Shown here piece by piece: positions 3,156 through 50,342 of a stretch of DNA of 64,000 bases. The DNA comes from Serratia entomophila (lineage in GTDB: Bacteria; Pseudomonadota; Gammaproteobacteria; Enterobacterales; Enterobacteriaceae), in NCBI RefSeq assembly GCF_021462285.1, contig NZ_CP082787.1:2046001-2110000 (forward strand). The letters run 5' to 3'. The notes under the pieces were generated by a model. It saw only the letters and a list, made by a program, of their open reading frames with translations, was not told where the DNA came from and did no database searches. Position numbers and translations under genes: made by a program. The stretch's first letter is position 1, and each line of letters begins with the position of its first letter.

Positions 3156-3198
3156 GGAAATTCTCTTTATGTGTATTCTGCATTTTAGTTTATTACAA

Positions 3199-3208
3199 AA
3201 ATGCATTT
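3199..3208. promoter_or_regulatory. Palindrome AAATGCATTT in the lysR/cysteine dioxygenase divergent promoter
   Basis: Second copy of the palindrome found at 2198-2207. It lies between the divergent starts at 3155 and 3265. A related TGCATTTTA occurs 20 bases to the left (3179-3187), so two half-related sites are spaced about two helical turns apart, typical of LysR control regions. Confidence 0.4.
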
Positions 3209-3264
3209 AAATAATAAAAAGTTCTTTGTTAGCGTGATAAGCAGTCTTTCAGACAGGAATGCTT

Positions 3265-3864
3265 ATGACAACGCCCTTACGCTTAGACCGTTTACGTCAG
3301 TTCATCGAGCGACTGGCCCAATTGCATCAGCAGCCGCTGGGTGAGGCGGCGCGGCTCGATAACGCGGCGCAATTGCTTGCCGAATTGGTCGGCAGGGATG
3401 ACTGGCTGGCTGAGGAGTACTCTCGCCCACACCCTGAACATTATCAGCAGTACCTGCTGCACGTTGATTCCGCCCAGCGTTTTTCCATCGTCAGCTTCGT
3501 TTGGGGGCCGGGGCAGGTCACGCCGATCCATGATCACCGCGTGTGGGGGCTGATTGGCATGCTGCGCGGTGCTGAAATCAACCAGCGTTACCAGCTTGAC
3601 GGCCAGGGCGTGCCCCGGCCTGAAGGTGACGCCGAGCGGTTAACCGCCGGGCAGGTAGCGAAACTGTCCGAACAGGACGGCGATATTCACCAGGTCAGCA
3701 ATGCGTTTAACGATCGCGTGTCAATCAGCATTCATGTGTATGGCGGCAATATCGGCGCCGTTAAGCGTGCTGTGTATGGCGAAAGTGGTGCGGTGAAGCC
3801 CTTTATCTCCGGTTATTCCAATACTCAATTGCCTAATATTTGGGACCTTTCTAAGGAAGTGTAA
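3265..3864 (+). CDS. Cysteine dioxygenase-family cupin protein
   Basis: This 199-residue protein matches bacterial cysteine dioxygenases, which oxidise L-cysteine to cysteine sulfinate using a mononuclear iron. The cupin pair TPIHDHRVWG places His89 and His91. His142 (DIHQVSN) and His157 (SISIHVYGG) fall where the third iron ligand and the catalytic-triad histidine are expected. I start at the second ATG (3265) because AGGA at 3255-3258 is six bases ahead of it but touches the first ATG at 3259. It is followed within two bases by the rhodanese gene, so they form an operon. A 3-mercaptopropionate or related thiol dioxygenase is the main alternative. Confidence 0.85.
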   Translation: MTTPLRLDRLRQFIERLAQLHQQPLGEAARLDNAAQLLAELVGRDDWLAEEYSRPHPEHYQQYLLHVDSAQRFSIVSFVWGPGQVTPIHDHRVWGLIGMLRGAEINQRYQLDGQGVPRPEGDAERLTAGQVAKLSEQDGDIHQVSNAFNDRVSISIHVYGGNIGAVKRAVYGESGAVKPFISGYSNTQLPNIWDLSKEV

Positions 3865-3866
3865 CT

Positions 3867-5447
3867 ATGCCTGCCTTTGTTTACCGTGATTTTTCCACCC
3901 TGCGAGCCGCGCTGTTGGCCCGCCAGGAGTTGGCGCTGATCGATGTGCGTGAAGAAGCCGAATTTGCTGAAAGCCACCCGCTGTTCGCCGTGAACATTCC
4001 GCTGAGCAAGCTGGAGCTGGAAGCCTACCGGCGCATTCCGCGCCGCAGTACCCCTATTACCGTCTATGACAACGGCGATGGGCGGGCTGAACAGGCGGCA
4101 CGGCGGCTACGGCAGTTCGGCTATGGGGATGTCGCTCTGCTGACTGGCGGCCTGGCGGGTTGGCAAGCCGGCGGCGGCGAGCTTTTCCAGGACGTAAATA
4201 CGCCGAGCAAGGCCTTTGGCGAATTGGTGGAAAGCCGTAGGCATACGCCATCGCTGACTGCGCAGCAGGTTAAGGCGCTGATCGATCGGCATGCCGATGT
4301 GGTGATCGTCGATGCACGCCGTTTTGATGAATACCAAACCATGAGTATCCCCACCAGCACCAGCGTGCCGGGGGCGGAGCTGGTGCTGCGGATCAACGCG
4401 CTGGCGCCGGATCCCAATACGCAGGTGATAGTTAACTGCGCCGGGCGTACGCGCAGCATTATCGGTACCCAGTCGTTAATCAACGCCGGCATCAGCAACC
4501 CGGTGGCGGCGCTGCGCAACGGTACAATCGGCTGGGGGCTGGCGGGGTTTGCGCTGGAAAATCAACGGCAGCGGCGCTACACCGAGAATGTGGACAACCT
4601 GGCGCAGGCGCAGCAACGGGCGCGGCGAGTGGCGGACGCGGCCGGCGTACGGCGCATTGACCGCGAGACGCTTGGGTTGTGGCAGCAGGATGCGGCGCGC
4701 ACCACCTATCTGTTTGACGTGCGCAGCCCCGAGGAGTACCGCGCCGGGCATGTGTCGGGCAGTTGCAGTGCGCCCGGCGGGCAACTGGTGCAGGAAACGG
4801 ATCACTATGCCAGCGTGCGCGGCGCCCGCGTGGTGCTGGTGGATGACGACGGCGTGCGTGCCAATATGAGCGCTTCCTGGCTGGCGCAGATGGGCTGGGA
4901 TGCGGCGGTACTCGATGGGCTGGAGGACGCCGACTTTACCGAGCGGGGCGATCCGGCGGCGCAGCTACCGCCGCCGCCGCCGGCCGATGAAGTCACCCCG
5001 GCGCAGTTGGCCGCACTGTTGGGCCAGGAAGGCACGGTGCTGCTGGATTTCACCACCAGCGCCAACTATGTGGCGCGCCATATTCCCGGCGCGCATTGGG
5101 TCCTCCGTTCACAGTTGCCGTTGGCGCTGGAAAACCTGCCGCCGGCAAAATGCTATGTGCTGACCTGCGGCAGTAGCCAGCTGGCGCGCTATGCGGTGCC
5201 GGAAGTGGCCGCGCTGACCGGCAAGCCGGTGCAACTGCTTGCCGGCGGTACCCTGGCGTGGATGGCTGAAAATCGGCCGTTGGAAAAGGGCGAAGGGCGG
5301 TTGGCCGCGCCGCGCATTGACCGTTATCGCCGCCCGTACGAAGGCACGGACAATCCGCGTGAAGCGATGCAAGCCTACCTGGACTGGGAGTTCGGGTTGG
5401 TAGAACAGCTTGAGCGTGATGCAACCCATGGCTTTACCGTGCTTTGA
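3867..5447 (+). CDS. Four-domain rhodanese-like sulfurtransferase
   Basis: The 526-residue protein contains four consecutive rhodanese folds at about residues 5-105, 130-230, 262-350 and 375-470, then a C-terminal tail of about 50 residues. The active-site cysteine is present in domain 2 (NCAGRTRS, Cys191) and domain 4 (LTCGSSQLAR, Cys434). It is replaced by aspartate in domain 1 (VYDNGDGRAE, Asp68) and domain 3 (LVDDDGVRAN). A proline stretch (PPPPPP) links domains 3 and 4. AAGGAAG is a good ribosome site and the gene starts two bases after the dioxygenase stop. It probably moves sulfane sulfur produced during thiol oxidation; the acceptor is unknown. Confidence 0.87.
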   Translation: MPAFVYRDFSTLRAALLARQELALIDVREEAEFAESHPLFAVNIPLSKLELEAYRRIPRRSTPITVYDNGDGRAEQAARRLRQFGYGDVALLTGGLAGWQAGGGELFQDVNTPSKAFGELVESRRHTPSLTAQQVKALIDRHADVVIVDARRFDEYQTMSIPTSTSVPGAELVLRINALAPDPNTQVIVNCAGRTRSIIGTQSLINAGISNPVAALRNGTIGWGLAGFALENQRQRRYTENVDNLAQAQQRARRVADAAGVRRIDRETLGLWQQDAARTTYLFDVRSPEEYRAGHVSGSCSAPGGQLVQETDHYASVRGARVVLVDDDGVRANMSASWLAQMGWDAAVLDGLEDADFTERGDPAAQLPPPPPADEVTPAQLAALLGQEGTVLLDFTTSANYVARHIPGAHWVLRSQLPLALENLPPAKCYVLTCGSSQLARYAVPEVAALTGKPVQLLAGGTLAWMAENRPLEKGEGRLAAPRIDRYRRPYEGTDNPREAMQAYLDWEFGLVEQLERDATHGFTVL

Positions 5448-5492
5448 ATCATCAGACAATACGCATAACCATCACCGGCAAAGAGGGAAAGT

Positions 5493-6449
5493 ATGGCGCA
5501 TTTTTCTGTACTACTTAGGGGCGTGGGGCTGAGCGCCATGTTATTAACGGCGTCGCTGGCACAGGGGGCGATCGGCGATGCCAAACTGGTACTGGGCGAT
5601 CAAGCCCGTGGGCTGCGTAGCCTGGTAGAGGCTGCCGGCGTGATGAAGGATGCGCCCTATCAGTATCAATGGGCCAATTTCCAGGGGGCGGCGCCGTTGT
5701 TTGAAGCGCAGCGCGCAGCCGCTGTAGATACTGCCTATGCCGGGGATTTGCCGGTATTAATGGCGGCGGCGGGCGGGGTGGATTTTAAGCTGATTCAGAC
5801 CAACGTCGGCTATGGCCAGTCTAACGGGATTATTGTGCCGAAGGATTCGCCGTTGCACAGCGTTCAGCAGCTGAAAGGGCAAACGGTGGTGGTTTCCTCA
5901 GCGCGCGGCAGCATCTCGCAAAACTTACTGTACGCGGCGTTGCAGGAGGCTGGGCTGAAGCGGGAAGATGTGAAGATTCAGTTCGTCATGCCCACCGATG
6001 CCAGCGCAGCGTTCAGCACTGGCAAGGTGGCGGCTTGGGCGGTTTTTGATCCCTATTTGGGCGTTGCGGAACAAAGCGGCGCGCGCCTGCTGCGCGATGG
6101 TCGGGGATTAACCCCATCGCTCGGCTTCTTGACCGCCACTACGTCCTCGTTGGCCGATCCGGACAAGCGAGCGGCCATCAAAGACTTTGCCGAACGCATC
6201 GCCAGGGCGCGGCAGTGGGCGATCGATCATCCGCAGGAATACGCCAGGGTATACGCGCAGCTGACGCGTTTGCCGCTGGAAACCGCCCGACAGATTGCGG
6301 ATCGAACGTCAAAGGGCGCGCATAGCGTCAATCAGCAGGACATTAATGTGTTGCAGCCAGTGGCGGATCTGTTTTATCAGTTAAAGATACTGCCGAATCA
6401 GGTGAATGTTAATAACTTGATCGATAAGGATTTTATTCTGGCGAAATGA
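5493..6449 (+). CDS. ABC transporter periplasmic binding protein, sulfonate/SsuA-like
   Basis: The 318-residue protein has a short basic start and a hydrophobic signal segment ending near LTASLAQGA. The body is of the SsuA/TauA type: YAGDLPVLMAAAGGVDFKLI, a GIIVPKDSPL strand, and FSTGKVAAWAVFDPYLG. Members deliver aliphatic sulfonates or taurine to an inner-membrane permease. No permease or ATPase gene follows, so it must use a transporter encoded elsewhere or has lost its partners. It lies 45 bases after the rhodanese gene and is probably in the same transcript. Confidence 0.82.
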   Translation: MAHFSVLLRGVGLSAMLLTASLAQGAIGDAKLVLGDQARGLRSLVEAAGVMKDAPYQYQWANFQGAAPLFEAQRAAAVDTAYAGDLPVLMAAAGGVDFKLIQTNVGYGQSNGIIVPKDSPLHSVQQLKGQTVVVSSARGSISQNLLYAALQEAGLKREDVKIQFVMPTDASAAFSTGKVAAWAVFDPYLGVAEQSGARLLRDGRGLTPSLGFLTATTSSLADPDKRAAIKDFAERIARARQWAIDHPQEYARVYAQLTRLPLETARQIADRTSKGAHSVNQQDINVLQPVADLFYQLKILPNQVNVNNLIDKDFILAK

Positions 6450-6466
6450 ATACTGCACCGGTTTAG

Positions 6467-6607
6467 ATGGTGGCGGTGGCCCTGTCGAGCGATCCCGAAG
6501 ATATCTATAAAACCGACGCAAAGGGCAAGGCGCTACATGCTGATGCCGGCTACGAGCAAACCATTGCCATGGCGAAGAAGTTCGGCTTGAAGCCGCCTAT
6601 GCTTTAA
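6467..6607 (+). pseudogene. 46-codon orphan reading frame, probable gene remnant
   Basis: After a TAG at 6464-6466, an ATG opens 46 codons ending in TAA. The product includes SDPEDIYKTDAKGKALHADA and ends AKKFGLKPPML. It has no clear ribosome site, its codon use is like that of its neighbours, and the product looks like the C-terminal end of a larger soluble protein. I do not recognise the parent family. It may be the last trace of a gene deleted between the binding-protein gene and ychF. Confidence 0.35.
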
Positions 6608-6646
6608 GAGACGGCAGGGAAGCGTTCCGAGCCTATTACCATTCAT

Positions 6647-6675
6647 AAAAAATCCACGCCGAGGCGTGGATTTTT
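6647..6675. terminator. Bidirectional Rho-independent terminator
   Basis: AATCCACGC and GCGTGGATT form a stem with A-runs on the left and T-runs on the right, so it can stop transcripts from both the sulfur operon (+) and ychF (-). Confidence 0.85.
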
Positions 6676-6698
6676 AACCGCAAGAACAACCGTCGCGA

Positions 6699-7790
6699 TT
6701 AGACGTTGAACAAGAAGTTCATCACGTCGCCGTCTTTGACGATGTAGTCCTTACCTTCTGAACGCATCTTGCCGGCTTCTTTGGCGCCTTGCTCACCCTT
6801 GTAGGTGATGAAGTCTTCATAGGCGATGGTTTGCGCGCGGATAAAGCCTTTCTCGAAGTCGGTGTGGATCTTGCCTGCCGCCTGCGGCGCGGTAGCGCCA
6901 ACCGGGATGGTCCAGGCGCGCACTTCCTTGACGCCGGCGGTGAAGTAGGTTTGCAGGTTAAGCAGTTCGTAACCGGCGCGGATCACCCGGTTCAGGCCCG
7001 GCTCTTCCAGGCCCAGCTCGGCCATAAATTCGGCGCGGTCTTCATCTTCCAGTTCGGCGATGTCGGACTCCACCGCGGCGCATACCGCAACCACTACTGA
7101 GCCTTCACCGGCGGCGATTTCACGCACTTTATCCAGGTACGGATTGTTCTCGAAGCCGTCTTCGTTAACGTTGGCGATGTACATGGTCGGTTTCAGCGTC
7201 AGGAAGCTCAGGTATTTGATCGCCGCCTTGTCTTCTTCGCTCAGATCCAGCGCGCGCAGCATGCCGGCATTTTCCAGCTGCGGCAGGCATTTTTCCAGCG
7301 CGGCCAGCTCGGCTTTCGCGTCTTTGTCGCCGCCTTTGGCTTTCTTCTGCACGCGGTGGATAGCGCGTTCACAGGTGTCCAGATCAGACAGCGCCAGCTC
7401 GGTGTTGATCACCTCGATGTCGTCAGCCGGATCGACCTTGTTGTTGACGTGGATGATGTTGTCGTTTTCGAAGCAGCGCACCACGTGGCCGATAGCTTCG
7501 GTTTCACGGATGTTGGTCAGGAACTGGTTGCCCAGGCCTTCGCCTTTGGAAGCGCCTTTCACCAGGCCGGCGATGTCGACGAATTCCATGGTGGTTGGCA
7601 GAATGCGCTGTGGCTTGACGATTTCGGCCAGCTTATCCAGACGCGGATCGGGCATCGGCACCACACCGGTGTTCGGTTCAATGGTGCAGAACGGGAAGTT
7701 GGCTGCTTCGATGCCCGCTTTGGTCAACGCGTTGAACAGGGTGGATTTGCCTACGTTAGGCAGGCCGACGATACCGCATTTGAATCCCAT
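6699..7790 (-). CDS. ychF: Redox-regulated ribosome-binding ATPase YchF
   Basis: The 363-residue Obg-family P-loop protein begins [20 protein letters not shown], with the G1 Walker A motif. [20 protein letters not shown] is the G3/switch region. The C-terminal TGS domain contains [20 protein letters not shown] and ends MNFLFNV. YchF prefers ATP because its G4 motif is altered (here NVNED), binds ribosomes and negatively affects oxidative-stress responses in E. coli. The length equals that of the E. coli protein. In E. coli it follows pth; here a SulP gene on the opposite strand separates them. Confidence 0.97.
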
Positions 7791-8129
7791 GTTGTAATCA
7801 CCTTAAATATCTTAACTATCAGCCGGTTAGGTTTAACAGGCTGCATAAAGGGCAAAATAATGCCGCCATTATACACGTAATGCGCGTTTATCTCGATCTG
7901 ACTTGCTGGGGCGGCAGAAGCAAACTGCCGGCGGCCGGTTTTTGATTGAGATTTGGATCACATTTACACATACTGACACTTCCGATTACCCGACAGGAAA
8001 CGCGCCGGATGTATTTCTTGCCCAGTCCACCCTGAGTGCTCCCCGCCCGATCGTTCGCCGCGCCTTGCGGCCCTCGCTCCCGTTCTGCTCTGCGGGGAGA
8101 CGTTTTCATCTGTCGGAAGTGAATAATCC
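7791..8129. other. Divergent control region between ychF and the SulP transporter gene
   Basis: These 339 bases hold no credible gene. They contain a CRP-like site (7947-7962). A GC-rich potential long-range stem (CTCCCCGC at 8039-8046 with GCGGGGAG at 8092-8099) would lie in the transporter mRNA leader. The rest shows nothing I can name. Confidence 0.6.
7947..7962 (+). promoter_or_regulatory. CRP-like binding site
   Basis: TGAGATTTGGATCACA matches the CRP consensus TGTGA-N6-TCACA at nine of ten conserved positions. It lies 168 bases upstream of the SulP start and 157 bases upstream of the ychF start. Which gene it controls is not evident. No strong -10 stands at the usual class I or class II distance. 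Confidence 0.5.
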
Positions 8130-9659
8130 ATGTTTAACCTGAGCAATATCAGGATCGCGGACGTTAAGAATGAAGTCCTGGCGGGCTTTGTGGTGGCGGT
8201 CTCGATGATCCCCGAGGCGGTCGGTTTTTCGCTGGTCGCCGGGCTTTCGCCGATCGTCGGTTTGCATACCGCGTTTATCATCGGCCTGGTGACCGCGCTG
8301 TTCGGCGGCAAGCCGGGCATGGTGTCCGGCGCGGCCGGCTCGATTGTGGTGGTGTTGATGAGCCTGGCGGCGCAGTACGGCATGGGCTACGTGCTGTGGG
8401 CGACCATTTTTGCCGGCGCCATTCAAATTTTGATTGGCGTATTCCGCCTGGGCAAGTTTATCCGGCTGGTGCCGCTGCCGGCAATCCACGGCTTCGTCAA
8501 CGGCTTGGCTATCGTCATCATGCTGGCGCAGCTGCATATGATCGCCGGGCAGGGGCCGTTGATGTACGGCCTGGTGGCGCTGGCTATTCTGGTGGTGCTG
8601 CTGTTCCCGCGCCTGACCAAGGTCATTCCCTCTTCGCTGGCGGCGTTGCTGGTGGTGTCGGCGTTGGCGATCGGTTTTAATCTGCACACGCTGCGGGTCG
8701 GTGACCTGGCGGACATCTCCGGCTCGCTGCCGCACTTTAGCCTGCCGGTGGCGCCGTTCAATCTGGAGATGCTGAAGGTGGTGCTGCCCTATGCGGTGGT
8801 GATCGCCCTGGTCGGCCTGATTGAATCGCTATTGACCATGACGGTGCTCGATGAAATGGGCGGCAAAAAGGGCAACGGCAACCGCGAAAGCATCGCACAG
8901 GGCGCCGGCAATGCGATTTGCGGCCTGTTCGGCTGCTTTGCCGGCTGCGCGATGATCGGCCAGTCGATCATTAACTTTACCTCGGGCGGACGCGGGCGTA
9001 TTTCCGGCGCTGTCGGCGCCGTGCTGCTGATCCTGTTCGTGGTCAGCCTGTCTCGTTACATCGGCCTGCTGCCGGTGGCGGCGCTGGCGGGGGTGATGCT
9101 GGTGGTATGCTACAACACCTTTGAGTGGAGCTCGCTGCGCCGTCTGCGCCGCATGCCGAAGGCCGATGCGCTGGTGATGGTGATCGTCACCCTGATCACC
9201 ATTTTCACCGATCTGGCGGTGGCGGTGATCGGCGGGGTGATTATCTCGGCGCTGGTGTTTGCCTGGCAGCAGGCGCGCATCCGGGTGCGCCAGCGGCAGG
9301 TGACGGACGATGTGGCGGTGTATCAGCTCGAAGGCCCGCTGTTCTTCGGCTCCACCGCAGCGTTCGCCGAGCTGTTCGAACCGAACGACGATCCGCAGAA
9401 TGTGGTGCTGGATTTCGCCGGCACCCGGGTGATGGATTCCAGCGGCGTGGAGGCGATCGACAAGCTGACGGCGCGTTATCTGGCGGCGGGGAAAAGCATT
9501 CGTCTGCGCCACCTGAGCGGCGACTGCGTGCGTTTGTTAAAGCGGGCCGGGCCGTTCTGCAGCCATGAACTGGACGATCCCGCTTACTACGTTGCGGAAG
9601 AGGGCTACGATACCGACGACCGGCGAGTGGCGGAAGAGACTTTCAATACCCGCACCTAG
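8130..9659 (+). CDS. SulP-family anion transporter with STAS domain
   Basis: The 509-residue integral membrane protein has about ten to twelve hydrophobic segments followed by a cytoplasmic STAS domain at about residues 390-480 (VAVYQLEGPLFFGSTAAFAE, then FAGTRVMDSSGVEAID). The N-terminus carries the SulP signature (SMIPEAVGFSLVAGLSPIVG). SulP proteins move sulfate, bicarbonate or C4-dicarboxylates. This one differs clearly from the DauA protein encoded at 20.6 kb: it lacks the long N-terminal lead and has a different pore region. It sits between ychF and pth, where E. coli has no such gene. The substrate cannot be assigned. Confidence 0.88.
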   Translation: MFNLSNIRIADVKNEVLAGFVVAVSMIPEAVGFSLVAGLSPIVGLHTAFIIGLVTALFGGKPGMVSGAAGSIVVVLMSLAAQYGMGYVLWATIFAGAIQILIGVFRLGKFIRLVPLPAIHGFVNGLAIVIMLAQLHMIAGQGPLMYGLVALAILVVLLFPRLTKVIPSSLAALLVVSALAIGFNLHTLRVGDLADISGSLPHFSLPVAPFNLEMLKVVLPYAVVIALVGLIESLLTMTVLDEMGGKKGNGNRESIAQGAGNAICGLFGCFAGCAMIGQSIINFTSGGRGRISGAVGAVLLILFVVSLSRYIGLLPVAALAGVMLVVCYNTFEWSSLRRLRRMPKADALVMVIVTLITIFTDLAVAVIGGVIISALVFAWQQARIRVRQRQVTDDVAVYQLEGPLFFGSTAAFAELFEPNDDPQNVVLDFAGTRVMDSSGVEAIDKLTARYLAAGKSIRLRHLSGDCVRLLKRAGPFCSHELDDPAYYVAEEGYDTDDRRVAEETFNTRT

Positions 9660-9665
9660 CGGCAA

Positions 9666-9688
9666 GCAGCGGGCGCCACGCCCGCTGC
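9666..9688. terminator. Terminator-like hairpin between SulP gene and pth
   Basis: GCAGCGGGCG and CGCCCGCTGC form a perfect ten-pair stem with a three-base loop between two convergent genes. No T-run follows on either strand, so it may act with Rho or stabilise 3' ends. Confidence 0.55.
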
Positions 9689-9696
9689 GGCAAGAC

Positions 9697-10287
9697 TCAG
9701 GCCTGCGCCTTGAAGCTGTGCAGGCGCTGAACGGTTTTTTCCAGCCCGTCTTTCATCAGCATTTCGGTGCAGCGCAGCGATTCGTCTATCGCTTCATCAA
9801 TCATCTTCTGTTCGCCGGCCGGCGGTTTGCCGAGCACGAAGCCCACCACCTTGTTCTTATCGCCCGGATGGCCGATGCCGATGCGCAGGCGGTAGAAGTT
9901 CGGGTTGTTGCCAAATTTGTTCTGAATGTCCTTCAGGCCGTTGTGGCCGCCGTTGCCGCCACCGAGTTTGATCTTGGCCACGCCCGGCGGCAGATCTAGC
10001 TCGTCATGCGCCACCAGAATTTCGTTCGGCTCGATGCGATAGAAGTTGGCCATCGCCAGCACCGCTTTGCCGCTCAGGTTCATAAAGGTGGTCGGCACCA
10101 GCAGGCGCACGTCGTTGCCCGCCAGGTTCAGCCGCGCGGTATAGCCGAAGAATTTGCTCTCTTCCTTCAATTGCTGGTTGTGGCGCTGGGCCAGTAAATC
10201 GACGTACCAGGCGCCGGCGTTGTGCCGCGTCTGGGCATATTCCGCACCCGGATTCGCCAGGCCGACTATCAATTTAATACTGCTCAC
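9697..10287 (-). CDS. pth: Peptidyl-tRNA hydrolase
   Basis: The 196-residue enzyme releases peptides from peptidyl-tRNA that drops off ribosomes. The family start [20 protein letters not shown] contains the catalytic His and the conserved Asn. The motifs [20 protein letters not shown] and [13 protein letters not shown] (substrate-binding loop) are all intact, and the length is normal. It is transcribed on the minus strand, upstream of and in the same direction as ychF, as in E. coli apart from the inserted SulP gene. Confidence 0.97.
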
Positions 10288-43309: not shown

Positions 43310-44398
43310 ATGAGTAGCGAATACCGTATCGACAGCCAAAGCCTCGGGCAGTTCGTTCAGGCTATCTGGCGCCAGGCCGGCAGCACGGCGCGCGAAGCCG
43401 AGCTGGTGGCGGAGCATTTGGTTGCGGCCAACCTGGCCGGGCACGACTCTCACGGCGTGGGTATGATCCCCAGCTATATGGCCTCGCTGGCGGAAGGGCA
43501 GCTGCAGCTCAATCAGCATGCTGAAGTGGTGCGCGACGCCGGGGCGGTATTGACCCTTAACGGCGGCGGCGGTTTCGGCCAGGTGGTGGCCAGCGAAGCG
43601 ATGGCGCAGGGCATTGAACGCGCCGGGCAGCTGGGGCTGGCGGCGGTGGCGTTGCACAACGCGCATCATATCGGCCGCATCGGCCATTGGGCCGAACAGT
43701 GCGCGCGCGCCGGGTTTGTTTCCATTCACTTCGTCAACGTGGTGGGCGATCCCATGGTGGCGCCGTTCGGCGGCAGCGATCGCCGTTTCGGCACCAATCC
43801 GTTTTGCGCCATTTTCCCGCGGCCGGGCCAGGCGCCGCTGCTGCTGGATTTCGCCACCAGCGGCATCGCCTTCGGCAAAACCCGCGTGGCTTACAATAAA
43901 GGGCTGAACGTCGCGCCGGGCTATCTGATTGACCAGCGTGGCCAGCCAACCACCGAACCCAGGGTGATGCACGAACCGCCGTTCGGTTCGCTGCTACCGT
44001 TTGGCGCGCATAAGGGCTATGCGCTGGCGGCGATGTGCGAAATCCTCGGCGGCGCGCTGTCCGGCGGCCGCACTACCCATAACGCGACCTTAAAGGCCGG
44101 CAGCGAGGCGATCTTCAACTGCATGACCACCCTGATCCTCAATCCGCAGGCTTTCGACGCGCCGGCGATGCAGGCTGAGGCCGAGGCGTTTATCGACTGG
44201 GTCAAGGCTTCGCCGCCAAGCGACGGCCAGCCGATTGCGGTGCCGGGCGAATGGGAGCAGGCCAACCGTGCGGCGCGGCTCGCGCAGGGTATCCCGGTGG
44301 ACGCCAATACCTGGCGGCAGATTTGCGCCGCCGCGCAGCAGGCCGGCATGGCGGATGCCGAGCTGGAGGGGTATCGGGCGCAGGCACGGCAGGCGTAA
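43310..44398 (+). CDS. hcxB: Hydroxycarboxylate dehydrogenase B (Ldh/malate dehydrogenase family)
   Basis: The 362-residue NAD(P)-dependent oxidoreductase closely resembles E. coli HcxB (YbiC), with LVAANLAGHDSHGVGMIPSY, the His-containing VALHNAHHIGRIGHWAEQC, and FGTNPFCAIFPR. HcxB reduces 2-oxo acids such as phenylpyruvate. AAGGAAG precedes the ATG. In E. coli ybiC is elsewhere; here it lies between pepT and the bacteriocin locus. Confidence 0.9.
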   Translation: MSSEYRIDSQSLGQFVQAIWRQAGSTAREAELVAEHLVAANLAGHDSHGVGMIPSYMASLAEGQLQLNQHAEVVRDAGAVLTLNGGGGFGQVVASEAMAQGIERAGQLGLAAVALHNAHHIGRIGHWAEQCARAGFVSIHFVNVVGDPMVAPFGGSDRRFGTNPFCAIFPRPGQAPLLLDFATSGIAFGKTRVAYNKGLNVAPGYLIDQRGQPTTEPRVMHEPPFGSLLPFGAHKGYALAAMCEILGGALSGGRTTHNATLKAGSEAIFNCMTTLILNPQAFDAPAMQAEAEAFIDWVKASPPSDGQPIAVPGEWEQANRAARLAQGIPVDANTWRQICAAAQQAGMADAELEGYRAQARQA

Positions 44399-44749
44399 AA
44401 ATCTGCTGACTGTTATCGACTAGTCCAGATCCTCTCACCTAAGGATCGCCGTTATGCAAGAGCCTCAGGGATGCCGCTAACGCGGGTTTCTCCTGAGGCT
44501 GCTGTTCTGGCATATCTCAAATCCACCTGCATTTTGTATCAGCCGCCACACAACCGGCAATTTCGAGCATCGGTTGCTTCCTGGGTGCCTCAGAAGTAAT
44601 TTACTGTGCATGCATACAGTGTTATTTCGTATGTTATCACGGGTTTTACAGCATCGCAGATGAGCGTTCCTGCTCTTGCTCGTCAGGCTTGCCGGGAGGA
44701 TCTGGCGCTGTAAACCGCCACAAAACAGGACGTAGAGAGGGTAACAATC
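44399..44749. other. Intergenic region with SOS box before the bacteriocin locus
   Basis: This 351-base gap contains an inverted repeat at 44461-44500 (AGCCTCAGG with CCTGAGGCT), perhaps ending hcxB transcription. It also holds the LexA box at 44602-44621, followed by a -10-like TATGTT at 44630-44635. No gene is supported in either strand. Confidence 0.6.
44602..44621 (+). promoter_or_regulatory. LexA (SOS) box
   Basis: TACTGTGCATGCATACAGTG has the full CTGT-N8-ACAG core and 15 of 20 matches to the canonical TACTGTATATATATACAGTA. It lies about 130 bases upstream of the fibre gene, the first gene of the bacteriocin locus. Colicin and S-pyocin operons are typically held by LexA in this way. 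No second overlapping box as in many colicin operons is clear. Confidence 0.82.
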
Positions 44750-45904
44750 ATGGCAGAGGAAAAGAAAAGCGCGCAGGTACTTAACGGCGTCAATGACGAC
44801 ATCACCGAGCTCAAATCGCTCACCAGGCTGCGCAAGCGTGTCGTCAGCGACGGTGAAATCGTCTCCACATCGGCTAACGGCTTCCGCCTGGCCACCGGCA
44901 AAACCGGCGTGATGCTGCGTAACGACGGTCAGAACTTTTATATGATGACCACGCCTGAAGGCCAGGCTCAGGACGGTTCGTGGAACGCCTTGCGTCCTTT
45001 CGTCTTCAACCTCGCTTCTGGCAGGGTCGGGTTGCTCAATGGCGTTGATATCTCTGGCGGTGCGATGGTCTCGCATAATGCCGGCATTTCTACGGCCACG
45101 ACCGGCCCGGCGCAGCTTATCAACGGACAAATTTATAACTCCGCACCGGTGCATAGCGATTTCACCAGCGGTAACGTCACCACGACCATGCTGATGGGCA
45201 CCCGTGTTATTCCCGGAAAAGATAATTTTGGGTTGATTTCTTACCGAGACTGGCAGGGAAATTGGAACGAACTCCAGGTCAGAGCCAATGCCGAGCTTTC
45301 GGTGGGGCAATTAACCAAGCGCAATCCCGATGGATGGATTTCAGCACAGGGCAACAAAAGTGTTGATAGCAATACCGGGCGTGTCACCAATGGGTTGCAT
45401 CTGCAAGGCCACCAGGACCGGTATGTCAGCGTATACCACCATGAAATCGTCGGCTCTCATCACAAGCTCGTCTTCCGCGTCGCTAACACCGGGGCAGACG
45501 GCTGGTTCGCTTTCCATAACGACGGTAACGCTTTTGCCAACGGCGCCTGGCATAGCAGTTCCGATGCCCGCATGAAAACCGACATCGAAAAAATTGATGG
45601 CGCATTGGAAAAATTAACCAAAATAAGCGGTTACACCTACCTCAAACAGGGCATTCCCGAAGCCGGGGTGATTGCCCAGGAAGTGGAAGGCGTCTTGCCA
45701 CAGTCGGTGATGCAAACCGAATTGAAGCTGAAAGACGGCAGCGAACTGAAAGATGCCCGCAGCATCAATATCAATGGGGTGGTGGCGCTGCTGGTCGAGG
45801 CGCTTAAGGAAGAGCGAGAGGCCCGGCTTGAAGTCGAGTCCCGGTTGGCCGTGTTGGAAAAAATATTCCCAGCAAATGACGATAATAAACCGACGATTTA
45901 TTAA
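44750..45904 (+). CDS. Fibre-like protein with C-terminal S74 intramolecular chaperone
   Basis: The 384-residue protein has a beta-rich body without a family I can name. A C-terminal S74 self-cleaving chaperone follows: SSDARMKTDIEKIDGALEKL, GYTYLKQGIPEAGVIAQEVE, and a final helical coil (VALLVEALKEEREARLEVES). Ser271 and Lys276 have the spacing of the catalytic dyad of phage endosialidase chaperones, so cutting before Ser271 would leave a 270-residue trimeric product. Phage tail spikes use this domain, yet no other phage genes lie here. It is the first gene after the LexA box and 122 bases ahead of the bacteriocin, so it probably works with that toxin; its role is unknown. Confidence 0.8.
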   Translation: MAEEKKSAQVLNGVNDDITELKSLTRLRKRVVSDGEIVSTSANGFRLATGKTGVMLRNDGQNFYMMTTPEGQAQDGSWNALRPFVFNLASGRVGLLNGVDISGGAMVSHNAGISTATTGPAQLINGQIYNSAPVHSDFTSGNVTTTMLMGTRVIPGKDNFGLISYRDWQGNWNELQVRANAELSVGQLTKRNPDGWISAQGNKSVDSNTGRVTNGLHLQGHQDRYVSVYHHEIVGSHHKLVFRVANTGADGWFAFHNDGNAFANGAWHSSSDARMKTDIEKIDGALEKLTKISGYTYLKQGIPEAGVIAQEVEGVLPQSVMQTELKLKDGSELKDARSININGVVALLVEALKEEREARLEVESRLAVLEKIFPANDDNKPTIY

Positions 45905-46026
45905 ACCTCTCTGAATCGGAAATTAAAGCGCGAATTTAAAATCGCGGGGATTTCCCTGCGTATCGACGCCTATTCGATAGGTAATAATAATTTCTGGTAA
46001 AATTATCATATGAAGGAATCAATAAT

Positions 46027-48090
46027 ATGCCACAGGAACTGAATGGCCATGGCCCGACGGCCGGCGATCCGATGGGCGGAACCGGCGCTAACCTTAATGA
46101 ACGACCCGATAGCGCTACGCCAGGTGGCTCGAACGGTAATGGCGGGCGCGACAGCGGTAATGACAATTCTCAATCGGCCGCATTTCAACGCCAGATGACC
46201 GCCGTGCTGAATGATCCGGCGATTAAAAACATGCTGGCGGATTTGCAAAAGCGAGCTCTGCGCATTAGTCCATCGGCGAAAGTCGAATTAGTCAGTGTAG
46301 ATGCCCGCGGTAAGTTGAGTATAAGCCTTTCGGGTATGCGTCGTGAGCAGTCTCTCGCCGTAGAGATGGCTTTTCAGTCAGTGCGACCGCAAATAGAAAG
46401 AGATTTAATATTTTCATTTACCGCCAGCGAGGGCACAGTAAATGAAAATACGTTTTATTTAGGAAAGATTGAAACCGGCTACCGACTCGGTGATTACGAG
46501 CGAGGACCCAGCGGTAACAATGGTGATGCCAATACGGTGGCTGAAAACAACGTCACGTTTAGTGCTTATTCCTCTGTTCTGCAAGGGAAGATACCACCGG
46601 GCTATTGGCTGGATAACAATAAAGTCATGACTGAGGTTGTGATTGAATATGAGATTAACGGTGGGGGGAAAGGAGACAGTCGGACGGGGTACCGAAAAAC
46701 CACAGTAGAAGTTCCTTCGCTCACCCGTGCTTACCAACAGTGGCAACAGATGCTCAGAGACGTCGCTGAGGAGCAACGTAAAGCCGAAGAGGCCCGCAAA
46801 GCTGAGGAAGCCCGCAAGGCAGAAGAGGCCCGTAAAGCCGAGGAGGCCCGCAAAGCTGAGGAAGCCCGCAAGGCAGAAGAGGCCCGTAAAGCCGAAGAGG
46901 CTCGTAAGGCCGAAGAAGCCCGCAAGGCCGAGCAAGCCCGCAAGGCAGAAGAGGCCAGAAAAGCCCTGTTTGCCAAGGCGGGTATTTTGGACGCCCCGGC
47001 TTACACGCCTGAAAAGGCGAAAGCGGCCACTGCGGCGCTGGCTGCTACAGGTGCCATGGTACTCAACCGCGCCCCAGCGATGCTACAGATGTCGACGGCT
47101 GCACAAGGTGTTATGACGACATCGAGCGAACTGGCCGGCTGGGTATCGAGTGCGTTGTGGCGGGGGGCAACTGAAGTTGGCAGTATACGTTCCGGCACCG
47201 TGGTCGCTGCAGGGTCGGTTCTGGGGGCCTTTGCTCTCGGTTTCTACCCAACTGAAGCCGGAGCGGGCAGTGGCCAGGTTCCAGGGCGTGACGTCAATCT
47301 GTTTGCCCTTCAGGCGAGCCTGGCGGCGGCAGGCACAACGACAATCCAGCCCGGAATGGCCACGGTCGATTTGCCGGTGCGCGGATTTATCACTACTGAC
47401 GATGACGGCAAGCAGAGCGTCAACTTTGTCCGGACGGGCGTTGGCGGCGTATCGCCGAGCGTGCCGGTATTCAGACCGGTTCGTGACGAGCAAACGGGGC
47501 TGGATAAAATCACGCTGCCCGCGATGGCGGGCGTGCCGGCCAGGACGATCCTGATCAATCCGGTGCCGAGCGGGCCGGCCGCGCCGACGCATACCGGCAA
47601 CGGTTCACCGGTGCCCAGCACCCCGGTACATACCGGCACCGGCGTCAGGCAGGCGGACAGCATCGTGGTCACCACCTTCCCGGCGGATGTGGTGCAGGAG
47701 CTGCAAGATTTTATCTTGTGGCAACCGGATGCGCTGGAAACCGGGGTTGAAGCTATCTATGTGATGGCCAGTGATCCGTTGGACTCGGGGCGTTTTACTC
47801 GTCAGCAACTGGATAAAAAGTACAAGCACGCTAGTGATTTTGGTGTTGCGGACACCAGGAAAAACAGAGAGACTCTGACTAAATATCGCGATGCGCTCGA
47901 GGCTCATTTGAAAGATAAGGATACGGTAGAAAAAGGGACTTATAGACGAGAGAAAGGATCTAAGGTGTTTTTCAACTCAAAGACAAATAATGTCGTTGCG
48001 CTTGATAAGAATGGGGTATTTATATCTGGGTGGCATTTAACCCCAGGAACACCACAGTATAATAGCTATATAAGTACAGGGGTTTTATAA
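46027..48090 (+). CDS. Bacteriocin with colicin D-type tRNase domain
   Basis: The 687-residue protein has a Gly/Asn-rich flexible start (residues 1-50), a beta-rich region (about 55-235) and a charged coil of ten KAEEAR units (252-311). A pyocin-S-type central/translocation domain (about 320-580) includes RDVNLFALQASLAAAGTTT and QELQDFILWQPDALETGVEA. The C-terminal domain (about 590-687) matches colicin D nuclease: QLDKKYKHASDFGVADTRKN, EKGTYRREKGSKVFF. His601 corresponds to the catalytic His of colicin D, which cuts tRNA-Arg anticodon loops. The last 300 bases become AT-rich, unlike the rest, suggesting a swapped tip. The stop overlaps the immunity start by one base (TAATG). The receptor and import route are not evident. 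Confidence 0.88.
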   Translation: MPQELNGHGPTAGDPMGGTGANLNERPDSATPGGSNGNGGRDSGNDNSQSAAFQRQMTAVLNDPAIKNMLADLQKRALRISPSAKVELVSVDARGKLSISLSGMRREQSLAVEMAFQSVRPQIERDLIFSFTASEGTVNENTFYLGKIETGYRLGDYERGPSGNNGDANTVAENNVTFSAYSSVLQGKIPPGYWLDNNKVMTEVVIEYEINGGGKGDSRTGYRKTTVEVPSLTRAYQQWQQMLRDVAEEQRKAEEARKAEEARKAEEARKAEEARKAEEARKAEEARKAEEARKAEEARKAEQARKAEEARKALFAKAGILDAPAYTPEKAKAATAALAATGAMVLNRAPAMLQMSTAAQGVMTTSSELAGWVSSALWRGATEVGSIRSGTVVAAGSVLGAFALGFYPTEAGAGSGQVPGRDVNLFALQASLAAAGTTTIQPGMATVDLPVRGFITTDDDGKQSVNFVRTGVGGVSPSVPVFRPVRDEQTGLDKITLPAMAGVPARTILINPVPSGPAAPTHTGNGSPVPSTPVHTGTGVRQADSIVVTTFPADVVQELQDFILWQPDALETGVEAIYVMASDPLDSGRFTRQQLDKKYKHASDFGVADTRKNRETLTKYRDALEAHLKDKDTVEKGTYRREKGSKVFFNSKTNNVVALDKNGVFISGWHLTPGTPQYNSYISTGVL
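46780..46959 (+). repeat. Ten 18-base tandem repeats encoding KAEEAR
   Basis: Ten consecutive 18-base units encode KAEEAR, one reading KAEQAR. Units 1-3 (46780-46833) and 4-6 (46834-46887) are identical except for one base, showing a recent 54-base duplication. The product would be a long charged helix or coiled coil, resembling the TolA stalk. Confidence 0.92.
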
Positions 48091-48362
48091 TGAGTATGAA
48101 ATTAATAGAAATAGCAAGGGATCTTGTAAGCTCAAAGTTAACTGCCGATGATTTTGAGTTGCAGTTCTTTACAATATGGAGGGAGGAAAGCGACTCAGGA
48201 CAGCTAGCGAAGGATAGCCAGCATGTTGGCGAATGCGCGTCAGAGCTTTTTATTCTTGCTGACTGTTATACATCACAGTCGAATCGTAGAGAAAGTGAAC
48301 TAGACGCTGATGGATTAAAAAAGGAAGTGAAAGACACTCTAGAGCGTTTCCATCTTCTTTGA
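48090..48362 (+). CDS. Colicin D-type immunity protein
   Basis: The 90-residue acidic protein resembles colicin D immunity protein (ImmD): IEIARDLVSSKLTADDFELQ, ECASELFILADCY, and a final DGLKKEVKDTLERFHLL. ImmD binds and masks the nuclease active site. The start ATG overlaps the toxin stop, which ensures that toxin and antidote are made together. The gene is AT-rich like the toxin tip. Confidence 0.86.
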   Translation: MSMKLIEIARDLVSSKLTADDFELQFFTIWREESDSGQLAKDSQHVGECASELFILADCYTSQSNRRESELDADGLKKEVKDTLERFHLL

Positions 48363-48486
48363 TTTTTAATTCTAAGATTAGCGACATACGCTAAGCAGTT
48401 TTTTATTGATAGTGTTTTCATCTCCGAATGGAGGATGGATCCAAAAGAATAAAATGGAAATATATATTTTGTTTCGGGGGAGTGGA

Positions 48487-48739
48487 ATGATATTTATTGA
48501 GCTTGAGAAGAAATTCGTGGAAAAATAATAAGCGCGGAGGGTTTTTCTGAGGGCGTTACGATAGGGTGACGTAAATTATATGGTTATGAAGAAAAGATAA
48601 GCAGGTTGATAAATGCAGCGTGTGGGGTATTCTTGCAGACTGTTATAATCCTGTTTCTGATCGATCAGAGTCTGAACTGGACAGAGTGGAGTTAAAGAAA
48701 GAAGTAGTGGCTGTTCTTAATAAATTTAATTTTATCTGA
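48487..48739 (+). pseudogene. Decayed second colicin D-type immunity gene
   Basis: An ATG at 48487 opens MIFIELEKKFVEK and stops. Shifting frame gives KIISAEGFSEGVTIG, which matches the ImmD segment KITAIEFSERI. After another shift, GILADCYNPVSDRSESELDR and VELKKEVVAVLNKFNFI parallel the end of the intact immunity protein. At least two frameshifts and internal loss make it inactive. It is a diverged paralogue rather than a copy of the neighbouring gene. Confidence 0.78.
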
Positions 48740-48899
48740 GTATGGGTTTAACGAGTAGTAAAAATAGTTATCCATTTTTTTATTGAAAATAACACTTGTG
48801 TCCAATAGACGTGAGTCTATTGGGCATTTTCTTTTTCGTAACGATGATAAGGAAGTGAAGAGCTAATTTAATAACGGTTACTCGGCTGCCCTTCAAGGT

Positions 48900-49072
48900 C
48901 CGGCGCCAGGCAGGCGGACAGCATCGTGGTCACCACCTTCCCGGCGGATGCACTGGAAACCGGGGTTGAAGCTATCTATGTGATGGTGCGCAGTCCGAGA
49001 TATACTCCGGGTAAAGTGAGCGGCGAAGGACAGCAAGTGGGGGACAGCTGGTTGAATAATAAAAAATCATAG
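48900..49072 (+). pseudogene. Relic of a second bacteriocin: pyocin-S end joined to a DNase-domain start
   Basis: 48900-48950 repeats 47639-47689 with one mismatch. 48950-48986 repeats 47731-47767 with one mismatch. The 42 bases between are missing, an in-frame deletion between GGATG repeats. The reading continues as VMVRSPRYTPGKVSGEGQQV, then GDSWLNNKKS and a stop. PGK-(x)-GEGQ-x-V-x-x-x-WLNN is the entry into E2/E9-type HNH DNase domains of colicins and S-pyocins. There is no start codon and no catalytic part, so it is a fossil cassette. Confidence 0.75.
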
Positions 49073-49157
49073 GCGCATTCTTTTTGTGGATAAATTGCTG
49101 TCTTGGTAGAAACGTATTGCTGCGCTGTAGAGGCGTTGCCAGCTTTTTGCCCACCCT

Positions 49158-49186
49158 AAAAAAACGGCCCGCATTAGCGGGCCGTT
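49158..49186 (-). terminator. Rho-independent terminator of roxA
   Basis: On the minus strand AACGGCCCGC and GCGGGCCGTT form a stem followed by seven T residues, 35 bases past the roxA stop. Confidence 0.88.
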
Positions 49187-49220
49187 ATGCATGTTCAACA
49201 AAGGCTATAGCCCCGGCAAC

Positions 49221-50342
49221 TTAGTCGTTAAAGTACCAGTAGCCGCTGTTGACCAGCGCGGTGAGCAGCGCCAGGAACGAGGGATCGTCCACCGCGTCGC
49301 CCAGCAGGGCGGCGTCGACGCTGAAGTGCTGGCACAGCGCGTCTGCGGCCTGCAGATGTTCGGTGTCGATCAGTTCGCCGTTGACGAAGCACTGGTCGCC
49401 GACGCGCAGCACGCGCAGGCCGCCAAGGCGCTGTAGCGCTTCGCCTTGCTGCAGCAGCTCGTAAATTTCACCGGCCTGGTATGGCGGTTCCGGCGGCGCG
49501 ACGTCCAGCTCGTGGCGCGACTGGGAGATAAACTCGCCGAACCAGTGCTGGAAGTGCTGCGGCTGCTGCACCAGATCCAACATCATCTGGCGCAGGGCGT
49601 CGACCTCTTGCGGCAGCACTTCGGCCGGATGCTCGCGCAGCTTGATGTCCGGGTCGCTGTAGCGCTTGCTGCCCAGCTCGCGCGCCAGCACGTAGTCGGC
49701 GAAGCCACTCACCAGCTCGCGGCCGTTCGGCGCGCGGAAGCCCACCGAGTAGTTCAGCGCGTTTTCCAGCGCGTAGCCTTCGTGCGGGAAGCCCGGCGGG
49801 ATATACAGGATATCGCCCGGTTCCATTTCTTCGTCGATGATGGCGTCGAAGGGTTCCACCTGCAGCAGGTCCGGATGCGGGCTGTGCTGCTTCATCGGCA
49901 GCTTTTCGCCCACGCGCCAGCGACGGCGGCCGGTGCCCTGAATAATAAAGACGTCGTACTGGTCCAGGTGCGGGCCAACGCCGCCGCCCGGCACCGAGAA
50001 GGAGATCATCAGGTCGTCCATCCGCCAGTCCGGCAGTTGCCGGAACGGGCGCATCAGCGCGCTGGAAGGCTCATGCCAGTGATCCACCGCCTGCACCAGC
50101 AGCGACCAGTTATTTTCGCCAAGGTGGTCAAAGCTCTCGAAGGGGCCGTGCGCAACCTGCCAGCGGCCGTCCTGGTGGCTGACCAGGCGGCTGTCCACTT
50201 CGTTTTCCATCGCCAGCCCGGCCAGCTCATCCGGGGAGATCGGATCGATAAAGTTTTTGAAGCCGCGCTTCAGAATCACCGGACGCTTTTGCCAATAGCG
50301 TTGCAAAAAATCGTTCCAGTCCAGATCTAATTGATAATCCAT
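49221..50342 (-). CDS. roxA: 50S ribosomal protein L16 arginine 3-hydroxylase (RoxA/YcfD)
   Basis: The 373-residue JmjC-fold, iron- and 2-oxoglutarate-dependent oxygenase hydroxylates an arginine of L16. The iron site is HLDQYDVF (HxD) with the distal His in IPPGFPHEGYALEN. The C-terminal dimerisation and winged-helix regions are complete. Its chromosomal partners phoQ and phoP follow upstream, as in E. coli, while the bacteriocin locus has been added on its other side. Confidence 0.95.
   Translation of the reverse strand: MDYQLDLDWNDFLQRYWQKRPVILKRGFKNFIDPISPDELAGLAMENEVDSRLVSHQDGRWQVAHGPFESFDHLGENNWSLLVQAVDHWHEPSSALMRPFRQLPDWRMDDLMISFSVPGGGVGPHLDQYDVFIIQGTGRRRWRVGEKLPMKQHSPHPDLLQVEPFDAIIDEEMEPGDILYIPPGFPHEGYALENALNYSVGFRAPNGRELVSGFADYVLARELGSKRYSDPDIKLREHPAEVLPQEVDALRQMMLDLVQQPQHFQHWFGEFISQSRHELDVAPPEPPYQAGEIYELLQQGEALQRLGGLRVLRVGDQCFVNGELIDTEHLQAADALCQHFSVDAALLGDAVDDPSFLALLTALVNSGYWYFND

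What the first reader, a model, noticed from the sequence alone, without database searches (positions are those of the whole stretch)
44602..48362. SOS-controlled locus joining an S74 fibre-like protein, a colicin D-type bacteriocin and its immunity gene
A 15/20 LexA box precedes a fibre-like gene, which is followed by a 687-residue bacteriocin with a colicin D tRNase tip and an overlapping ImmD-like gene, all on one strand. Ordinary colicin operons have toxin, immunity and lysis genes. Here no lysis gene is seen, and a self-cleaving fibre protein occupies the promoter-proximal position instead. I know of no described bacteriocin system with this composition. The fibre could aid export, stability or target binding of the toxin. 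The operon membership of all three genes is inferred from spacing and the absence of a strong terminator between them.
Basis: partly seen in the sequence, partly recalled or inferred. Interest (0 to 1): 0.85.

Follow-up and report, generated by a model that had tools for sequence, protein, structure and literature searches.

The report
Klebicin-type fibre-plus-toxin bacteriocin locus
This Serratia locus makes a phage-fibre-like protein together with a tRNA-cutting antibacterial toxin and its antidote; the arrangement is real and conserved, but it was already described in Klebsiella in 2005, and what the fibre does is still unknown.

Summary
A LexA-like box (44602-44621) precedes an S74 fibre gene (44750-45904), a colicin D-type toxin gene (46027-48090) and an overlapping ImmD-like gene (48090-48362).

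The novelty claim does not. The same order (phage-associated fibre gene, nuclease gene, immunity gene) is published as the klebicin C and klebicin D clusters, and a 2013 paper reports it in Serratia marcescens WW4. The fibre is 70% identical to a Klebsiella plasmid protein annotated "klebicin C phage associated protein".

In 30 genomes of the window's genus, all 17 fibre loci have a Pyocin_S toxin downstream on the same strand.

Added here: the S74 Ser/Lys pair is present in 26 of 26 fibres compared; residues 190-264, just before the cleavage site, are hypervariable, look exchanged by recombination and do not follow toxin type; the fibre is constant while 23 toxins fall into 5 N-terminal and 4 C-terminal groups; several relatives carry orphan toxin-tip/immunity cassettes, and the window keeps decayed relics.

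Best reading: a Serratia klebicin C/D-type cluster whose fibre is an accessory receptor-binding fibre. Published work on purified KlebC suggests the fibre is not essential for killing.

The parts
44602..44621 (+). LexA-like (SOS) box, 15/20, intact CTGT-N8-ACAG core
   Evidence: conserved position upstream of the fibre in related loci; none of 1000 shuffles reached 15
44750..45904 (+). Fibre gene, 384 aa, kcp/kdp-like phage-associated protein: conserved N-terminal part with Gp34_trimer match (residues 28-85), variable part 121-264, Peptidase_S74 match (271-320) with Ser271/Lys276
   Evidence: best PDB matches 5yvq, 4uxe and 6f45 tail-fibre proteins
45317..45541 (+). Fibre residues 190-264: hypervariable segment just before the presumed cleavage site, the presumed mature tip
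46027..48090 (+). Toxin gene, 687 aa: Gly-rich colicin S4-like N-terminus (1-73), unassigned domain, KAEEAR coiled-coil repeat, colicin D-like central/Pyocin_S region (304-580), tRNase domain (about 594-687)
48090..48362 (+). ImmD-like immunity gene, 90 aa; its ATG begins at the last base of the toxin stop codon
48378..48394 (+). weak terminator-like hairpin after the immunity gene
   Evidence: consensus match only
48629..48736 (+). relic of a second ImmD-like gene (36 residues, 56% identical to the immunity protein's C-terminus, no full ORF)
48798..48827 (+). strong terminator-like hairpin (13 pairs)
48802..49058 (+). relic of an orphan toxin cassette: two blocks, each 93% identical in DNA to orphan-cassette DNA of locus L058, with an internal deletion

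Best explanation
The locus is a chromosomal Serratia member of the klebicin C/D kind of phage-associated bacteriocin cluster. DNA damage would release LexA from the box at 44602 and transcribe fibre, toxin and immunity together (inferred). The toxin carries a colicin S4-like Tol-type N-terminus, a central domain used for inner-membrane passage in colicin D, and a tRNase tip that would cleave tRNA in the target; the immunity protein masks the tip in the producer (by homology). The fibre would form a trimer, cut off its own S74 chaperone domain in front of Ser271, and bind the surface of target cells through its variable tip (residues about 190-264), giving a second, exchangeable layer of recognition beside the toxin's own receptor domain. 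It is probably helpful but not essential for killing. Release probably relies on SOS-triggered lysis from elsewhere in the genome (inferred). Odds: cluster identity 0.93; tRNase toxin/immunity pair 0.95; SOS control 0.85; fibre as accessory receptor-binding protein 0.5.
For: Fibre 65-76% identical to nine plasmid proteins that cover at least 80% of it, one annotated 'klebicin C phage associated protein'; 7 of these 9 have a Pyocin_S-like toxin downstream, the other 2 have Tn5403 or IS26 there instead. PMC10269471 (passages): klebicin C and D clusters = phage-associated gene, activity gene, immunity gene. All 17 fibre loci in 30 genus genomes have a Pyocin_S domain 1249-1505 bp downstream on the same strand. 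Toxin 304-686 vs colicin D 5znm E 1.4e-116; immunity vs ImmD 1tfk E 3e-7. LexA-like box conserved. Fibre: S74 Ser/Lys pair in 26 of 26; mean pairwise identity 82% (1-120), 53% (190-264), 85% (265-360) among 22 fibres; in the 12 closest of 276 pairs, chosen by low synonymous difference in residues 1-120, synonymous difference is 0.74 in the tip against 0.26 on both sides, as expected if tips are swapped by recombination. Tip similarity does not follow toxin N-type (1538 of 2000 permutations reach the observed difference).
Against: No functional data on this locus. A KlebC-based toxin purified as a toxin-immunity complex killed Klebsiella, and its authors conclude that the KlebC domains hold all the import information (PMC8324772 passages), so a targeting role for the fibre is not needed for killing. 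Tip pN/pS medians (0.345) stay well below 1, so positive selection is not shown. Identity of the fibre's N-terminal and S74 regions is higher within than between toxin N-groups (permutations reaching it: 40 and 0 of 2000), not corrected for descent. The fibre lacks close phage relatives (all best places under 60% identity). The structure predictions were too poor to use (mean pLDDT 35 and 45).
Confidence: 0.88

Rival explanations
1. The fibre works inside the producer or during release (chaperone, carrier or stabiliser of the toxin) and binds the shared central domain of the toxins rather than target cells.
For: The fibre is constant while toxin N- and C-termini vary; the central domain is the only toxin part common to all 23 toxins compared. 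The fibre gene comes first in the cluster.
Against: It does not predict a hypervariable, apparently exchanged segment directly before the cleavage site, unrelated to toxin type. KlebC toxin with its immunity protein could be made and used without mention of the fibre (the word 'phage' does not occur in that text).
Confidence: 0.2
2. The fibre gene is a passenger: a captured or relic phage gene kept by linkage to the promoter and leader, with no role in killing.
For: KlebC kills without it. Broken fibre genes exist: the own second locus (L011) and L044.
Against: 26 full-length fibres with an intact S74 Ser/Lys pair and strong constraint (pN/pS medians 0.168 and 0.158 in the conserved regions). 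In L011 the toxin gene beside the broken fibre is interrupted too. Two Klebsiella plasmids keep the fibre after losing the toxin.
Confidence: 0.2
3. The fibre acts on its own after release, for example by covering surface receptors and so interfering with phages or kin bacteriocins, in parallel with the toxin.
For: Tip diversity independent of toxin type; fibre kept without toxin in L042 and L043.
Against: No direct evidence; every one of the 17 loci in the genus keeps the toxin beside it.
Confidence: 0.08
4. The fibre belongs to a prophage or tailocin remnant and sits beside the toxin by accident.
For: The fibre resembles T4-like long tail fibres.
Against: No other phage structural gene was recognised among the ORFs listed around it (my reading of the ORFs); association conserved in 17 of 17 genus loci and 7 of 9 plasmids.
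Confidence: 0.02

Closest known systems
Klebicin D cluster (kdp-kda-kdi), Klebsiella oxytoca; Chavan et al. 2005, seen only as cited in PMC10269471, PMC3120645, PMC9990079
   Same: Fibre-like phage-associated gene, colicin D-type tRNase gene and immunity gene in this order on one strand; K. oxytoca plasmid NZ_CP029127 has fibre + colicin tRNase + immunity.
   Different: Host genus and chromosomal site; the N-terminus of the window's toxin is colicin S4-like, whereas the plasmid's toxin matches the Cloacin domain PF03515 there.
Klebicin C cluster (kcp-kca-kci)
   Same: Same three-gene composition (PMC10269471 passages); a 70% identical fibre is annotated with its name.
   Different: Klebicin C has an rRNase tip and a TolC-binding hairpin (PMC8324772 and PMC12927319 passages).
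Serratia marcescens WW4 bacteriocin region SMWW4_v1c20330-20390 (PMC3717176 passages)
   Same: Same genus; 'klebicin C phage-associated protein' homologue beside Pyocin_S toxin and immunity genes.
   Different: DNase-type toxins and further Pyocin_S/immunity genes downstream; the WW4 DNA was not compared here.
Colicin D / ImmD of E. coli
   Same: Central domain and tRNase (51% identity over toxin residues 314-687 in plasmid hits), immunity family.
   Different: The plasmid colicin D hits shown cover only residues 314-687; a different N-terminus here and a fibre gene in front.

Membership tests
Klebicin C/D-type phage-associated bacteriocin cluster | Fibre-like phage-associated gene homologous to kcp/kdp, first in the cluster | tested here: met
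   70% identity to CP011634 'klebicin C phage associated protein' and 65-76% to nine plasmid proteins; AY578792/AY578793 themselves were not compared
Klebicin C/D-type phage-associated bacteriocin cluster | Nuclease bacteriocin gene directly downstream on the same strand | tested here: met
   Pyocin_S + Colicin_D; 122 bp gap
Klebicin C/D-type phage-associated bacteriocin cluster | Cognate immunity gene after the toxin | tested here: met
   PF09204 E 7.2e-16; ImmD match
Klebicin C/D-type phage-associated bacteriocin cluster | SOS-type promoter | tested here: met
   LexA-like box conserved in place; induction itself not testable with these tools
Klebicin C/D-type phage-associated bacteriocin cluster | Killing of related bacteria | not testable with these tools
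   needs a bench assay
Colicin D family toxin | Colicin_D tRNase domain with colicin D-like central domain | tested here: met
   5znm 304-686, E 1.4e-116
Colicin D family toxin | Colicin D-type N-terminal receptor/translocation domain | tested here: not met
   colicin D plasmid hits listed stop at residue 314; N-terminus resembles colicin S4 instead
Classical colicin operon (toxin, immunity, lysis) | Linked lysis lipoprotein gene | tested here: inconclusive
   no lipobox small ORF on the + strand; PF02402 search had no positive control
S74 self-cleaving fibre | Peptidase_S74 domain with Ser/Lys pair | tested here: met
   Ser271/Lys276 in 26 of 26 full-length fibres; catalytic role of the pair recalled; cleavage itself untested

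The most novel reading that the evidence does not exclude
The fibre is an autonomous, exchangeable targeting module for a freely diffusing protein toxin: a trimeric self-maturing fibre whose tips are swapped by recombination independently of toxin entry domain and warhead, while the toxin's C-terminal warheads are swapped from arrays of orphan toxin-tip/immunity cassettes kept downstream. The locus would then be a two-ended, polymorphic-toxin-like bacteriocin, with aiming and killing parts evolving separately.
Probability: 0.3. Interest if true: 0.6.

Novelty: new member of a known kind. Interest (0 to 1): 0.32.

Why it matters
The role of the phage-associated protein of klebicins has been open since 2005 (as cited in PMC10269471). 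The Serratia loci give a natural set for testing it: one fibre family with intact autocleavage residues, variable tips and five toxin entry types in one genus plus Klebsiella and Erwinia. If the fibre binds targets, simple protein bacteriocins would have a second recognition layer borrowed from phages; if not, a strongly conserved gene in bacteriocin clusters has another job still to be found.

Tried and rejected
Prophage or tailocin remnant: rejected because the fibre-toxin pair is conserved in 17 of 17 genus loci. Recent transfer from a known phage: not supported, all best places in 1295 phage records are under 60% identity and only one record covers at least 80% of the query. Presence in E. 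coli: megablast of the locus found none (distant matches not searched). Structured RNA: no Rfam family at gathering threshold. Structure prediction: fibre mean pLDDT 35.2, toxin 45.1, from alignments of 7 sequences each; not usable, so no fold search was made. Lysis gene search inconclusive. An unidentified C-terminal domain found in 8 of 23 toxins gave no family match in the two of these toxins scanned (Pfam and NCBIfam) and no PDB match better than E 0.7. Chavan et al. 2005 is not held; what I say of it comes from papers that cite it and from recall. An earlier count said 19 of 28 intact LexA cores; the recount is 18 of 28. The same entry says 6 orphan cassettes in L054; one search lists five truncated Pyocin_S matches there.

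Full report
What is there. The three ORFs stand as described. Pfam places a Gp34_trimer and a Peptidase_S74 domain in the first protein, Pyocin_S and Colicin_D in the second and Colicin_immun in the third. The toxin aligns with colicin D (5znm) over residues 304-686 at E 1.4e-116, and the last about 105 residues with the colicin D tRNase domain; the third protein matches ImmD at E 3e-7. Residues 1-73 of the toxin resemble the colicin S4 N-terminus (E 1.6e-5); that this means Tol-dependent entry is recalled, not tested.

The SOS box. The 20-mer at 44602 scores 15/20 with an intact core. In 1000 mononucleotide shuffles of the 400 nt upstream the best score never exceeded 14; elsewhere in the window no 20-mer exceeds 12. 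Of 28 loci (window, own second locus, 17 loci from relatives, 9 plasmid loci), 18 have an intact core, 8 a CTGG-N8-ACAG variant, one a short spacer and one none. Some of the 28 are near-duplicates (for example L041 and L045). The box lies 133-157 nt before the fibre in most Serratia loci and 59-72 nt before it in the Klebsiella and Erwinia plasmid loci that have one.

It is a known kind. [quoted passage not shown] 2005 for the likeness of Kcp/Kdp to tail-fibre C-termini and for the idea that they act like receptor-binding domains. [quoted passage not shown] marcescens WW4. In the plasmid collection 442 records match the fibre; nine cover at least 80% of it, at 65-76% identity: seven Klebsiella, one Erwinia tasmaniensis, one S. 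marcescens. Seven of the nine have a Pyocin_S-like toxin downstream; in two the toxin is missing and Tn5403 or IS26 lies there. In the S. marcescens plasmid the toxin region is annotated as two ORFs, and in L044 the fibre frame is broken.

Distribution. The nearest named matches are six Serratia loci. Among 30 genomes of the window's genus, 15 carry the fibre, in 16 full-length copies plus the window genome's own split copy. All 17 have a Pyocin_S domain 1249-1505 bp downstream on the same strand, in frames of 585-783 aa; seven other long Pyocin_S matches (frames of 579-864 aa) have no such fibre. In the window the cluster lies between the ORF ending at 44398 and the ORF whose stop is at 49221; in 23 genomes where both neighbours are found, 19 have a gap of 46-355 bp, and four have larger gaps (2638, 2660, 3039 and 4828 bp, the last being the window). 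In five other genomes (G001, G008, G009, G014, G021) a fibre locus lies within 10 kb of the same right-hand neighbour. So this is a favoured insertion site.

Modularity. Of 28 loci, 23 gave a toxin ORF over 600 aa. By BLAST single linkage (E <= 1e-4, at least 45 residues) their first 230 residues form five groups, their last 100 residues four groups, and the region between one group. In nine toxins scanned, the tips are Colicin_D (5), rRNase PF09000 (1), DNase PF21431 (1) or unidentified (2). The fibre stays one family throughout.

The fibre. All 26 full-length fibres have Ser271 and Lys276 (that these form the S74 catalytic pair is recalled). Among 22 fibres, mean pairwise identity is 82% at residues 1-120, 66% at 121-189, 53% (minimum 25%) at 190-264 and 85% at 265-360. 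Among 24 fibres (L042 and L045 left out), median pN/pS is 0.17, 0.30, 0.35 and 0.16 in those regions. In the 12 of 276 pairs with the lowest synonymous difference in residues 1-120, synonymous difference is 0.74 in the tip but 0.26 in residues 1-120 and in the S74 region: the tip looks exchanged by recombination. The pairs were picked on the first region, so only the S74 comparison is unbiased. Tip similarity is unrelated to toxin N-group (0.508 within, 0.535 between; 1538 of 2000 permutations). Similarity of residues 1-120 and of S74 is related to N-group (40 and 0 of 2000 permutations), which may be shared descent, not corrected for.

Mechanism. For klebicin C, a hybrid of the toxin with the colicin E9 DNase, purified with Im9, killed three Klebsiella species, and the authors concluded that the remaining KlebC domains hold all import information; the word 'phage' does not occur in that text (PMC8324772 passages). 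That their KlebC is the toxin of the kcp cluster is by name; I did not compare sequences. Klebicin D uses LepB for import, as colicin D does (PMC6455109 passage). So the fibre is probably not essential for toxin entry. The intact autoprotease pair, the constraint on both ends and the exchanged tip are most simply explained by an accessory receptor-binding fibre; I put this at about one in two. Carrier or chaperone, passenger, and independent-action readings remain.

Orphan cassettes. One search lists truncated Pyocin_S matches in short frames in six of 30 genomes, five of which carry the fibre (five matches in G007, two in G014, one each in G004, G006, G008). In the loci read (L046, L050, L054, L055, L058) they are toxin-tip cassettes, many followed directly by an immunity-like ORF. 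The window keeps relics of such a cassette: 36 residues of an ImmD-like C-terminus at 48629-48736, and DNA at 48802-49058 that is 93% identical in two blocks to orphan-cassette DNA of L058. PMC3717176 (passages) reports that a transposon insertion at such a downstream Pyocin_S gene in WW4 abolished inhibition of P. aeruginosa, so some may be active; I did not check that gene's length.

Own second locus. G000:C1 about 497-502 kb carries a related cluster with a 19/20 LexA-like box, a fibre in two overlapping frames, a toxin whose N-terminal part lies in a separate frame, an intact 90-aa Colicin_immun gene and a further small toxin-tip-like/immunity-like pair. It was described only.

Verdict. 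The interest lies in the unsolved role of the fibre, for which tip exchange and tip/toxin independence are new, testable leads. In my paper searches I noticed no experimental test of the fibre; subscription papers are mostly not held.

Noticed in passing
L011 (G000:C1:495000-506000), about 2375-6750, minus strand: A second fibre/toxin/immunity cluster in the same genome with a stronger LexA-like box (19/20), a broken fibre, an interrupted toxin N-terminus, an intact immunity gene, and next to it a small toxin-tip-like ORF with a possible immunity ORF.
   Followed up: partly
L054 about 5285-10178 (G007); also L058, L046, L050, L055: Arrays of orphan Pyocin_S toxin-tip cassettes, many followed by an immunity-like gene, downstream of the main toxin, as in CDI/Rhs polymorphic toxins (that comparison is recalled).
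   Followed up: partly
C-termini of toxins in L049, L053, L054, L057, L059, L060, L061, L062 (8 of 23): An unidentified toxin-tip domain (conserved YTHE.RELERYR ... W..HTATLEDY) without a C-terminal Pfam or NCBIfam match in the two of these toxins scanned, and no PDB match better than E 0.7.
   Followed up: partly
window 44398-49221: Insertion hot spot: the neighbours are 46-355 bp apart in 19 of 23 genomes compared; two others have inserts of about 2.6 kb and one of 3.0 kb of unknown content.
   Followed up: partly
8 related loci, e.g. L050-L053, L055, L058-L060: LexA-like box with one half-site changed from CTGT to CTGG, possibly weaker repression or altered SOS control.
   Followed up: no
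window 44622-44749: Long leader (128 nt) between the LexA-like box and the fibre start, also long in most Serratia loci but short in the Klebsiella/Erwinia plasmid loci; no Rfam match.
   Followed up: no
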